64,000 nucleotides of DNA from Methanococcoides burtonii DSM 6242. Lineage in GTDB: Archaea; Halobacteriota; Methanosarcinia; Methanosarcinales; Methanosarcinaceae. The notes under the pieces were generated by a model that was given only the letters and a program-made list of their open reading frames with translations, did no database searches and had not been told where the DNA came from. Position numbers and translations under genes: made by a program. Of the stretch, positions 1,367 through 6,115 are shown piece after piece. The stretch covers positions 1,333,579 to 1,397,578 of the forward strand of contig NC_007955.1 of assembly GCF_000013725.1 (NCBI RefSeq), written 5' to 3'. Positions within the stretch are counted from its first letter, which is position 1, and the number at the start of each line of letters is the position of its first letter.

Positions 1367-3487
1367 ATGAGTGAACTACCATGGGAAAATAAAAAAGGAA
1401 ATGCAAATACCTCTAATGAGCATTCGCCTGAACCCAACCTACCTTGGGAATCTGAAAAGAAGAACGACATATCTGTTGATGTGGACTCTGAAATCGCCCC
1501 GGATATTTTTGCAAATGCCATCAAACCCTCTGAAGCAAAAAATAGTCCAGATAACAAACCGGAAATAACCGTACATCCGGCATTTATTCCAAAGATAACA
1601 TCTGATCCTATCGATAAAGATGAAAATATAACCATGGTCAAGCCCTTTGAAAACGATAATGTCCACATAAATCAAGTAGAGCGGACTGTATCGAATATAG
1701 CAGTCATTGATAGAATTCAAAAAACTAGCCAAAAGGATGATAAAAAAGCATCTTTACCATTATTTGAACCAGACTTTCCTGACAACGATATACCCCCATT
1801 GGTTGAAAATAATAATGATGAAGCTATGTTCCCATCAATTAATGAAGATGAATTTACAGTAGCTGAAGAGCCTGTGTTCCCATCAATTAATGAAGATGAA
1901 TTTACAGCAACTGAGGAACCTGTGTTCCCATCAATTAATGAATTTGAATTTACAGCAACTGAAGAACCTGTGTTCCCATCAATTAATGAAGATGAATTTA
2001 CAGCAACTGAGGAACCTGTTTTCCCATCAATTAATGAAACTGAATTTACAGCAACTGAGAAACCTGTGTTCCCACCAATTAATGAAGCTGAATTTACAGC
2101 AACTCGCGAATCCACATTGCCACCGATCGCTAAAGCTGCTCAAGAAGCATCAAAATCAATACCAAATAAAAAAGGGAAAGGATTCCTGGCTTCAATAACA
2201 GATGCATTGAAAAGGATCGCTCAAAAGAAAAAATTAATCGACAGAATGGAAGAATTCCAACCAATTGCACCTGAATATACAGATCAGGATAAAGAATCCC
2301 CAGCAGTATCAGAACAAAATCATAAGGGCATAAGTTCTGAAAACAAAGCTATTCCCCCTATTGATATAAGTGAAAATGTTAATTTGGACGATATTCGAAC
2401 AGTAGTACCAATCGAGAATGCGATAATCATTGAGAAAGAAGAGATCATTGAAAAAGTGGAAAGCTCACCCCTAACTCTTTCTATAGAAGCAATGGATGAA
2501 ATAAAAAAAGAGCTTGCCGATTCAAAACGATCTCAAGAATCTCTTTATACGAACATTGGCACCCTTACCGGAAATATTGGAGAGCTGGAACAATCACTAA
2601 CCGTTATCAAAAATGATAGTGAAAACACCAATTCCAGCATCAATGCCAGAATCGAAGAATCTACGAATCATATTGCTAAAATCGAAAAAAGAATCAGTGA
2701 ATTAGAAGATACTCTGGAAAATATTCACTCCGATAATAGCGAACTTCAGACCGGACTTGCATCCATTGAAGAAAACATTGCTGAACTTACAAGCTCAAAT
2801 GCAATGATATTCTCCCATATACAGAAAATAACAGAATTCGGTAATTCAAGATCTGCAGAGATATTTGAAACGAACGATCGCATCGATAAAATTGATGAGT
2901 CACTGACACTACTTACCCAGATACAAGACGAATCGCAAAAGAACATACACGAATTAAGATCTGTAGCTTCCGACATAATCAGAAGCTTAGAAAAAGCACA
3001 CAATACGAACAAAGAGTTCAAAGCTGAGACCGACGAACGTGGTGAACTTTTTAAGAATGAACTGATATCCCTAACTGAATTTGTAGAGAAAGAATTTAAA
3101 GCCATTGGAGCCAGAAGCTACAAAAGTCACGGTGAGAATGTTCATTTGAATAATATAATTAAAAATTCCACAAATATGAAACTCTGTATGGAATGGTTAG
3201 AATTCCTTATGGAGCTTGTGGGATGTAATCATCTTTCAGATATCCTGTCCTTCTATGAAGAGCTGGGATGGATAAATGAAGACGTGCGTGTGGAACTTAT
3301 CAGGTATGCAGAAGGTATCGATTACTATATTGAAAAATCTGATTGGAAGCTTCCCCCTGATGACCATGTAAAATCCATCTGGTTCATTGAACAGCTTGCA
3401 GGCCTTAAAGTCGATAAGAACAGGCTTTCGATCATAGAGAAAGACATCAAGAAAGTAAAAATGGGTACAGAGATATATGGAATCTGA
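1367..3487 (+). CDS. orphan FlaD/E-domain coiled-coil protein
   Basis: This 706-residue protein has four visible parts. Residues 1-35 hold two copies of an LPWE motif (ELPWENKK and NLPWESEKK). Residues about 155-250 are six 16-residue acidic repeats of the form FPSINEDEFTATEEPV. Residues about 370-570 are a long heptad-rich coiled coil. The last about 110 residues contain WLEFLMELVG followed by EELGWINEDVRVELIRYAEG, the pattern of the archaellum FlaD/FlaE C-terminal domain. In archaella FlaD/E proteins link the motor and chemotaxis input at the cytoplasmic face. No other archaellum gene is present here, so this is an orphan relative and much larger than usual FlaD/E. A decayed pilin-like gene follows. 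Domain call is by eye; the function is open. Confidence 0.8.
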   Translation: MSELPWENKKGNANTSNEHSPEPNLPWESEKKNDISVDVDSEIAPDIFANAIKPSEAKNSPDNKPEITVHPAFIPKITSDPIDKDENITMVKPFENDNVHINQVERTVSNIAVIDRIQKTSQKDDKKASLPLFEPDFPDNDIPPLVENNNDEAMFPSINEDEFTVAEEPVFPSINEDEFTATEEPVFPSINEFEFTATEEPVFPSINEDEFTATEEPVFPSINETEFTATEKPVFPPINEAEFTATRESTLPPIAKAAQEASKSIPNKKGKGFLASITDALKRIAQKKKLIDRMEEFQPIAPEYTDQDKESPAVSEQNHKGISSENKAIPPIDISENVNLDDIRTVVPIENAIIIEKEEIIEKVESSPLTLSIEAMDEIKKELADSKRSQESLYTNIGTLTGNIGELEQSLTVIKNDSENTNSSINARIEESTNHIAKIEKRISELEDTLENIHSDNSELQTGLASIEENIAELTSSNAMIFSHIQKITEFGNSRSAEIFETNDRIDKIDESLTLLTQIQDESQKNIHELRSVASDIIRSLEKAHNTNKEFKAETDERGELFKNELISLTEFVEKEFKAIGARSYKSHGENVHLNNIIKNSTNMKLCMEWLEFLMELVGCNHLSDILSFYEELGWINEDVRVELIRYAEGIDYYIEKSDWKLPPDDHVKSIWFIEQLAGLKVDKNRLSIIEKDIKKVKMGTEIYGI
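1829..2116 (+). repeat. six in-frame 48 bp tandem repeats
   Basis: Exactly six 48-base units, all in frame, encode a 16-residue acidic repeat. Units 1-4 are nearly identical in DNA. Units 5 and 6 carry E-to-K or R changes and FPPINEA in place of FPSINED, so the array erodes toward its 3' end. A seventh partial echo (LPPIAKAA) follows. Such arrays expand and contract by slippage, so repeat number may vary between strains. Confidence 0.95.
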
Positions 3488-3879: not shown

Positions 3880-5952
3880 TTATATTGGAAGAATTATGTG
3901 AATATCAGTTCCAGTGCCTTCCTCACTTTCCATCCATATCTTTCCTTTATGTGCATCAACAATATGTTTACAAATATAGAGACCAATACCAACTCCCCCA
4001 TATTTACGCGTAAGAGAACCATCTAGCTGCCGGAACTTATGGAACATATAAGGTATCTGATCAGACGCAACACCGACGCCCGTATCTTTTATTGCAATAT
4101 GTAAACTATCACGGGTCCGGTCCATGAAAACTGAGACAGTACCACTGGCAGGAGTGAACTTGATAGCATTGCCCAGAAGGTGAACAAACACTTTTTCAAG
4201 ATATACTTTATCACCTCTAATATAAGGAAGATCTTTCTTAACATCTATTTTCAACATTAATCTCTTCTTTTCAATATTTGAGGCCACCAATGAAATTGCT
4301 CTCTCAAGAGAAGATTCAACATTGATCTGAGCAAAACTATACTTGATCATGTCTGCCTGAACAGAAGTTATGTAAAGAAGTGATTCAACAAGTTCAATCA
4401 GAATAGTTGTATTACGCATAACAGCATCCATTGCTTTACGTTGTCTCTCATCAAGCTTACCAAACCTCTCTTCAGACATGAGACCCCCAAACCCTTTGAT
4501 AACATTCAAGGGTGTCCTAAGCTCATGGCTTAGATTTGCAAGGAACTCATCTTTCATCCTGTCAAGAGATTCTAACTGATAATTAGCTTCAGCTAACTGA
4601 TAAGCGTAGGTCTTAAGGGATTCTTCGTTCAGATTCCTTTCAATTGCCATGCCTATGATCCCCATGATCATCTGCATGGTGGTCAATTCATTTTCGTCCC
4701 ATTCCTCGCAATCTGAAACGTTATAAAGACAAATAAAACCTGCAAATTTACTATCTATATAAATAGGGAACGAAATGAATGATCTAATTCCTTTTTTCAT
4801 AAAAAGATCTTTTTCCTTAGAGGCCTGTGATGGTAATTTCCCTACATCTGTCACAAAAACCACTTGACCCTTGGAAAGTTGTTCCATTATCCAAGGAATA
4901 ATACTAACAGGAATTTTCTGTAGTTCTTCTTTATGGCACAGAACCCCTTTACCACACCATTCATTCGTGTTGTCAGCAACAAATCCATCCTGACATAGCA
5001 TGAACATACCTACCCTGTCACATTCACAAAGGAGACCAATTTTTTCAAGGGCTTTATTAATTGCTACGTCAATACCATCAGGAGCAATGAAAAGAGAAGT
5101 TATCGATGAGATCGTATGTTCCAGATTTAGCTTGCGACCAATAGCTTTTTTTGCTTTGAACTTATCAGAAATATCTCTGAATATTATCATCACGGCTGGT
5201 ACCATATTGAACTCTATGAAAGAAACTGTGATCTCAACAGGTATGTTCTTACCATATTTAGATATTAAAAAAGTATCATACCTATCTCGAACATTTTTGT
5301 CCTTATGAAGAATTTTTTGATATAACTTCATTAATGTACTCCGGTCCCCCGGAGATATTAATTTAAAAAAATCAGAACCCATAACTTCATCCCGATCATA
5401 ACCGGTAATATTGAGCACTTTGCTGTTAACGAACTTGACCTTGAGATCATAAATAAGCACGACCCCATCATTACTTTTCTCAACTATCGTGGAGTACTGA
5501 TCTCTTGACAACTTCCCGACCGGATCATTATCATTCATCGTGACATTCTGGCTAACATCTGAGAACATGAAATTAACTAGTTGATAGCTACGCCCTCCAA
5601 TCGATGCAGCCTTTGTGTTCATATGAATAGGAATAGTATTACCATTTACTTGAACAAGTTCAAGATCAAAAATAGTAGTATCGCTTCTAGTAACGGGGGA
5701 CACTTTTTGGTACTAATTATTAAAAAAAGTATGGCAGTCTTTTCCCAAGACATCATCCTTGGAGAGACCTATCATTTCAATTCCCTCCGGATTCATGTCC
5801 ACCACCTGACTGGTCTGCACATCAACAAGGACCAAGCCTCCCGGTAAAAGAGATAAAAATGATACAGAACGCTCAGCATCATCAAAAGGCGTTGAAGCTA
5901 TTCCAATCGGGATATGATCAATTCTTAATACATCACTATTTGTCTCCAACAA
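3880..5952 (-). CDS. PAS-PAS-GAF sensor histidine kinase with in-frame UAG
   Basis: One frame runs from TTG 5952 to TAA 3880 and is broken only by a TAG at codon 80. The first segment (to FFNN) holds the first half of a PAS domain; the part after TAG (YQKVSPVTRSD onward) is the second half. Then follow a second PAS (about residues 140-265), a GAF-like region (about 275-440), the HisKA box with DEFLANLSHELRTPLN (His near 476) and an HATPase with NAIKFT and GVGIGLYICKHI. No transmembrane segment is seen, so it is probably a cytoplasmic sensor. If UAG is read through, for example as pyrrolysine, a 690-residue protein results. Otherwise translation could restart at GTG 5703, losing half of the first PAS. 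No response regulator is adjacent. Confidence 0.85.
5713..5715 (-). other. in-frame amber codon inside PAS domain
   Basis: The plus strand reads CTA, hence TAG on the coding strand, in the context AAT AAT TAG TAC CAA. The codons on both sides are in the same frame and together make one PAS domain. None of the intact genes in this window stops with TAG. Methanosarcinaceae can translate UAG as pyrrolysine, so this may be a sense codon rather than a mutation. Confidence 0.9.
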
Positions 5953-6115
5953 AGCCAGTCCCCCGATTGCATAGAATACTATAAAGTGTACTTAATAGTA
6001 AACTGTAACAAAAATATATAATAAATATATTACTGAAATAGATATAAATGTTACCCATGGAAATAATTTAAAAAAATGAAAACTATGAAGACGTCGAGAT
6101 CCTCATAATTAAAGA

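What the first reader, a model, noticed from the sequence alone, without database searches (positions are those of the whole stretch)
5713..5715. In-frame UAG inside a sensor kinase, possible pyrrolysine readthrough
A single TAG splits an otherwise intact histidine kinase in the middle of a PAS domain; both sides are in the same frame and make one PAS fold. No intact gene in this window ends with TAG. Methanosarcinaceae read UAG as pyrrolysine in methylamine methyltransferases. A regulator whose length depends on UAG decoding would couple signalling to pyrrolysine supply, and thus to methylamine use.
Basis: partly seen in the sequence, partly recalled or inferred. Interest (0 to 1): 0.8.

Follow-up and report, generated by a model that had tools for sequence, protein, structure and literature searches.

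The report
Sensor kinase with probable pyrrolysine codon
A microbial signalling gene that looks broken by a stop signal is probably intact, because this methane-producing archaeon seems to read that signal (UAG) as the rare amino acid pyrrolysine; the site itself looks incidental, but related kinases in the same genus keep such a codon at fixed positions.

Summary
On the minus strand, TAG at 5713-5715 is codon 80 of an otherwise open 690-codon frame (TTG 5952 to TAA 3880-3882) encoding PAS-PAS-GAF-HisKA-HATPase_c, and one PAS match spans it. The genome (2,575,032 bp, probably Methanococcoides burtonii) has pylTSBCD and almost never ends genes with TAG (3 of 370 sampled; 0 of 54 in the window), although TAG is 19% of stop-like triplets.

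The window kinase has no ortholog in 111 relatives, so its own TAG cannot be tested for conservation; it lies in a variable PAS loop. Other sensor genes show that TAG is sense here. A receiver-PAS protein of the same genome has a TAG with purifying selection downstream. A multi-PAS kinase keeps TAG at one codon in three species. A histidine-kinase clade carries TAG in the ATPase domain in 20 of 20 sequences from 11 of 11 Methanococcoides species.

Best explanation: UAG is translated as pyrrolysine and the full kinase is made (about 78%), probably a tolerated drift substitution. The proposed methylamine switch is not supported for this site but stays open for the conserved clade. A recent nonsense mutation is the main rival. 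Peptide data are needed.

The parts
3880..5952 (-). whole kinase reading frame if UAG is sense: TTG start 5952, 690 codons, TAA 3880-3882
5713..5715 (-). in-frame TAG, codon 80
   Evidence: only stop in the frame
5960..5964 (-). GGGGG Shine-Dalgarno-like element 7 nt before TTG 5952
   Evidence: duplex energy -8.6 kcal/mol, matched by 2.3% of random internal codons
5548..5832 (-). first PAS domain (residues 41-135), interrupted by the TAG
   Evidence: PAS_9 35.8 bits across the TAG
5164..5469 (-). second PAS domain (residues 162-263)
   Evidence: PF13426
4642..5064 (-). GAF domain (residues 297-437)
   Evidence: PF01590
4357..4557 (-). HisKA dimerisation/phosphoacceptor domain (residues 466-532)
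   Evidence: PF00512
3886..4215 (-). HATPase_c domain (residues 580-689)
   Evidence: PF02518
3880..5703 (-). frame downstream of the TAG under the standard code (GTG 5703, 607 aa); its start has no Shine-Dalgarno

Best explanation
The gene is an intact cytoplasmic PAS-PAS-GAF sensor histidine kinase. Its codon 80, UAG, is decoded by tRNA-Pyl as pyrrolysine because this archaeon uses UAG as a (nearly) ordinary sense codon, not because of a local signal. Translation starts at TTG 5952 behind a GGGGG element and ends at TAA 3880. The residue sits in a variable, probably surface loop of the first PAS domain and most likely arose by drift, tolerated because the cell reads UAG. Shown: the frame, domains, pyl genes, scarcity of TAG terminators, and selected in-frame TAGs in other sensor genes of the genome and genus. 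Inferred: that this mRNA is translated through, that the residue is pyrrolysine, and that it has no special role.
For: One frame and one PAS match across the TAG, no other lesion in 690 codons. Complete pylT, S, B, C, D in a cluster and a single full-length aRF1. TAG ends 3 of 370 sampled genes (5 of 383 with a looser cut) though TAG is 19% of stop-like triplets. Shine-Dalgarno at the upstream start, none at the first start after the TAG. Same genome: a REC-PAS-PAS protein with TAG at a variable PAS position (orthologs V, L, S, E) has dN/dS 0.11-0.12 after the TAG; an HNH-like frame has a TAG inside its Cys/His motif; 2 of 49 PAS_9 matches have an internal TAG, none an internal TAA or TGA. Same genus: a multi-PAS kinase with TAG at one PAS codon in three species, dN/dS 0.14-0.23 on both sides; a kinase clade with TAG in HATPase_c in 20 of 20 sequences from 11 of 11 species, monophyletic 100/99, dN/dS 0.19 before and 0.12 after the TAG.
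Against: No ortholog of this kinase in 111 other Methanosarcinaceae genomes (best 35%), so neither the TAG nor selection on this gene can be tested directly. TTG is a weak start. Two cysteines of the loop present in relatives are gone next to the TAG, which could be early decay. Real pseudogenes of kinases exist in this genome. A few genes, such as pylB, do end at TAG. No peptide data.
Confidence: 0.78

Rival explanations
1. A recent nonsense mutation in a lineage-specific kinase paralog: UAG mostly terminates, giving a 79-residue fragment, and the gene is an early pseudogene.
For: No ortholog, so no demonstrable selection; Cys loop next to the TAG is diverged; the genome holds decayed kinase fragments with TGA/TAA/TAG stops.
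Against: Only lesion in 690 codons, and it is the one stop triplet that this genome avoids as a terminator. Comparable in-frame TAGs in kinases under purifying selection show that UAG is read in this genus. Kinase and PAS motifs are intact on both sides.
Confidence: 0.13
2. UAG ends a short upstream peptide and a functional, shorter kinase (607 aa or less) is translated from an internal start.
For: The downstream frame holds PAS2, GAF, HisKA and HATPase_c intact; GTG 5703 lies just after the TAG.
Against: GTG 5703 and the next three starts have no Shine-Dalgarno (+0.6, +2.6, +0.8, -0.1 kcal/mol); the PAS half after the TAG would be useless, yet it keeps the PAS pattern.
Confidence: 0.06
3. A regulatory UAG: kinase length depends on pyrrolysine charging, so signalling is tuned by methylamine growth, at this site.
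For: Termination here would remove all kinase domains, so output would depend on UAG decoding.
Against: Site not conserved and in a variable loop; no downstream structure (z -0.48); UAG appears to be a general sense codon, so nothing singles this gene out.
Confidence: 0.03

Closest known systems
Pyrrolysine by neutral evolution in tRNA-His guanylyltransferase of Methanosarcina (Heinemann et al. 2009, reference B21 of PMC3639795)
   Same: A single UAG in a non-methyltransferase gene of a Pyl-using archaeon, otherwise intact, at a site without evident need for Pyl
   Different: Known here only through its citation in PMC3639795 and from memory; in the window translation is inferred and the protein is a sensor kinase
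Cluster 16 of predicted Pyl genes: sensory transduction histidine kinase with in-frame UAG in M. acetivorans, M. mahii and M. barkeri (PMC3639795)
   Same: A histidine kinase with in-frame UAG in Methanosarcinaceae, predicted computationally
   Different: M. burtonii is not named among that cluster's members; whether it equals the HATPase_c clade found here was not tested
Methylamine methyltransferases MtmB, MtbB, MttB
   Same: Single in-frame UAG read as Pyl with the pylTSBCD machinery
   Different: There Pyl is catalytic and conserved; here it is in a variable loop with no known role
Archaeal 'Pyl code' in which all TAG codons are Pyl (a 2025 report, recalled from memory; not in the held library, not verified)
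   Same: Rare TAG terminators and many in-frame TAGs in ordinary genes, as seen in this genome sample
   Different: Not checked whether this gene or the conserved kinase clade is listed there

Membership tests
Pyrrolysine-containing protein | Organism has tRNA-Pyl, PylS and PylBCD | tested here: met
Pyrrolysine-containing protein | In-frame UAG inside one continuous coding frame and domain | tested here: met
Pyrrolysine-containing protein | UAG conserved in orthologs, or gene under purifying selection on both sides | tested here: inconclusive
   no ortholog in 111 relatives; met only for other sensor genes
Pyrrolysine-containing protein | Peptide with Pyl at the UAG position | not testable with these tools
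   no proteomic data available
Genome with UAG as sense codon (Pyl code) | UAG nearly absent as terminator | tested here: met
   3 of 370 and 5 of 383 sampled genes
Genome with UAG as sense codon (Pyl code) | No gene needs UAG as a stop | tested here: inconclusive
   pylB and four other sampled frames end at TAG, each with a short extension (about 19-43 codons) to the next stop
Sensor histidine kinase | HisKA with phosphoacceptor His and HATPase_c, with sensory PAS/GAF | tested here: met
Kinase clade with conserved UAG in HATPase_c | TAG between N box and G1 box | tested here: not met
   window kinase has its TAG in PAS1 and an open HATPase_c

The most novel reading that the evidence does not exclude
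Methanococcoides has made pyrrolysine part of its signalling machinery: a clade of sensor kinases keeps a selected Pyl in the ATP-binding domain (20 of 20 sequences, 11 of 11 species), other sensors including the window kinase acquire Pyl freely, and kinase output therefore depends on pyrrolysine supply.
Probability: 0.3. Interest if true: 0.8.

Novelty: new member of a known kind. Interest (0 to 1): 0.52.

Why it matters
Standard annotation would call this gene broken. If UAG is sense here, many 'pseudogenes' of Methanococcoides are intact, and pyrrolysine reaches well beyond methylamine methyltransferases into signalling. The conserved ATPase-domain UAG in a related kinase clade is a concrete case where a role for pyrrolysine outside methyl transfer can be tested.

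Tried and rejected
Orthologs of the window kinase: none above 35% over most of its length in the family. PYLIS-like structure after the TAG: none. AlphaFold of the PAS region from a single sequence: pLDDT 36, unusable. Coding-score comparison of TAG, TGA and TAA with open frame on both sides: TGA and TAA hits include neighbouring genes in one frame, so counts are not comparable. The 2025 Pyl-code report was sought and is not in the library. Strict selection on the conserved ATPase-domain UAG: suggestive only, since 3 of 30 equally variable columns are also invariant in that clade.

Full report
Observation. On the minus strand, TAG at 5713-5715 is codon 80 of a frame from TTG 5952 to TAA 3880-3882, 690 codons without another stop. 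The protein reads PAS-PAS-GAF-HisKA-HATPase_c. One PAS_9 match spans the TAG (residues 41-135, 35.8 bits); the part before it scores 26.2 bits alone and the part after it nothing alone.

Organism. The genome is one contig of 2,575,032 bases. From memory this is the size of Methanococcoides burtonii DSM 6242; the identification is inference. A tRNA-Pyl gene (CTA anticodon) lies beside pylS, followed by pylB, pylC and pylD, all over their curated cut-offs. One full-length aRF1 is present.

Is TAG a stop here? In a 464-kb sample (window plus twenty 20-kb stretches) TAG ended 3 of 370 called genes, or 5 of 383 with a looser cut, while TAG made up 19% of stop-like triplets. In the window it was 0 of 54. 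The TAG-ended frames include pylB, whose TAG end in M. burtonii is known (PMC2933860), and all have short extensions to the next stop. The reviews read here state that Pyl insertion is not known to need a cis element (PMC9499178, PMC8211752), and none is seen after this TAG.

Start site. TTG 5952 has GGGGG 7 nt upstream (-8.6 kcal/mol with the anti-Shine-Dalgarno; 2.3% of random internal codons do as well). GTG 5703, just after the TAG, has none (+0.6). This favours one long protein over a restart.

Relatives of the window kinase. No ortholog exists in 10 other Methanococcoides or 101 further family genomes: best full-length matches are 32-35% identical. In an alignment with eleven relatives, the TAG column holds Ala in eight, Thr in one and Asp in two. 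It lies in a variable loop: most relatives have a Cys-rich CPAE...CPV stretch that the window protein has lost. Thus neither conservation of this TAG nor selection on this gene can be tested. This is the main gap.

Other sensor genes, same genome. A REC-PAS-PAS protein (871886-873598) has TAG at a PAS position where orthologs have V, L, S or E; against the two closest orthologs dN/dS is 0.33 before and 0.11-0.12 after the TAG. The codons after the TAG are under purifying selection, so they are translated. Its situation mirrors the window kinase: one TAG, private to the species, in a variable PAS loop. A histidine kinase (2425275-2426924) has TAG in HATPase_c. An HNH-like frame has TAG inside its Cys/His motif (L130:19728). 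Among 49 PAS_9 matches, internal stops are two TAG and no TAA or TGA. Kinase pseudogenes with mixed stops also exist, so the rival of decay is real.

Other sensor genes, same genus. A multi-PAS kinase of about 1,250-1,460 codons carries TAG at the same PAS codon in three species and TCA in a fourth; dN/dS among the TAG carriers is 0.16-0.23 before and 0.14-0.19 after it; one species has a second TAG. A kinase clade related to the 2425275 gene carries TAG in HATPase_c (NG-C/S-I-O-I-N) in 20 of 20 sequences from 11 of 11 species. It is monophyletic (100/99), with median dN/dS 0.19 before and 0.12 after the TAG, while sense relatives have eight different residues there. Invariance at so variable a column is suggestive of selection but not decisive: 3 of 30 such columns are invariant in the clade at the amino-acid level and none at the codon level. 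I excluded two unrelated kinases with TAGs elsewhere from this clade.

Conclusion. UAG is evidently translated inside sensor proteins of this genus and very likely in this kinase. Pyrrolysine is the expected residue given pylTSBCD; lysine or another residue by near-cognate reading is not excluded without peptides. The window site looks like neutral acquisition, as proposed for other genes (Heinemann et al. 2009, cited in PMC3639795). That paper also lists a histidine kinase cluster with in-frame UAG in M. acetivorans, M. mahii and M. barkeri. From memory, a 2025 report describes an archaeal code with all TAG as Pyl; it was not in the library and I could not check it, so I rate novelty conservatively. 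The methylamine-switch idea has no support at this site.

Noticed in passing
L167:1775-3424 (genome 2425275-2426924, +); also L176 and L199-L216: Histidine-kinase clade with an invariant in-frame TAG in the ATPase domain, 20 of 20 sequences in all 11 Methanococcoides species examined; a better candidate for functional pyrrolysine than the window site.
   Followed up: yes
L146:11470, L147:10564, L148:10647: Multi-PAS sensor kinase with TAG at the same codon in three species and TCA in a fourth; one species has a second TAG at L148:12462.
   Followed up: yes
L166 (genome 871886-873598, -): REC-PAS-PAS protein with a species-specific TAG and purifying selection on the codons after it.
   Followed up: yes
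L130:19728 (-): HNH-like frame with a TAG inside its Cys/His motif.
   Followed up: no
L142:8250-8252 (-): pylB itself ends at TAG; reading through would add about 42 residues overlapping pylC, a possible feedback on pyrrolysine synthesis.
   Followed up: no
L088 and L152:8548-9588 (-): Kinase with two in-frame TAGs, both at positions where close relatives have glutamine (WQD, EMQD), consistent with CAG to TAG transitions.
   Followed up: partly
L150:7185, L150 and L151 frames: A kinase of about 1,300 codons with one internal TAG in one species and none in its relative; both also have two TAGs near the 5' end of the open frame, probably upstream of the start.
   Followed up: no
window 1717-2200: The 706-aa protein at 1367-3487 (+) contains tandem copies of a PVFPSINEDEFTATEE-like repeat.
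   Followed up: no
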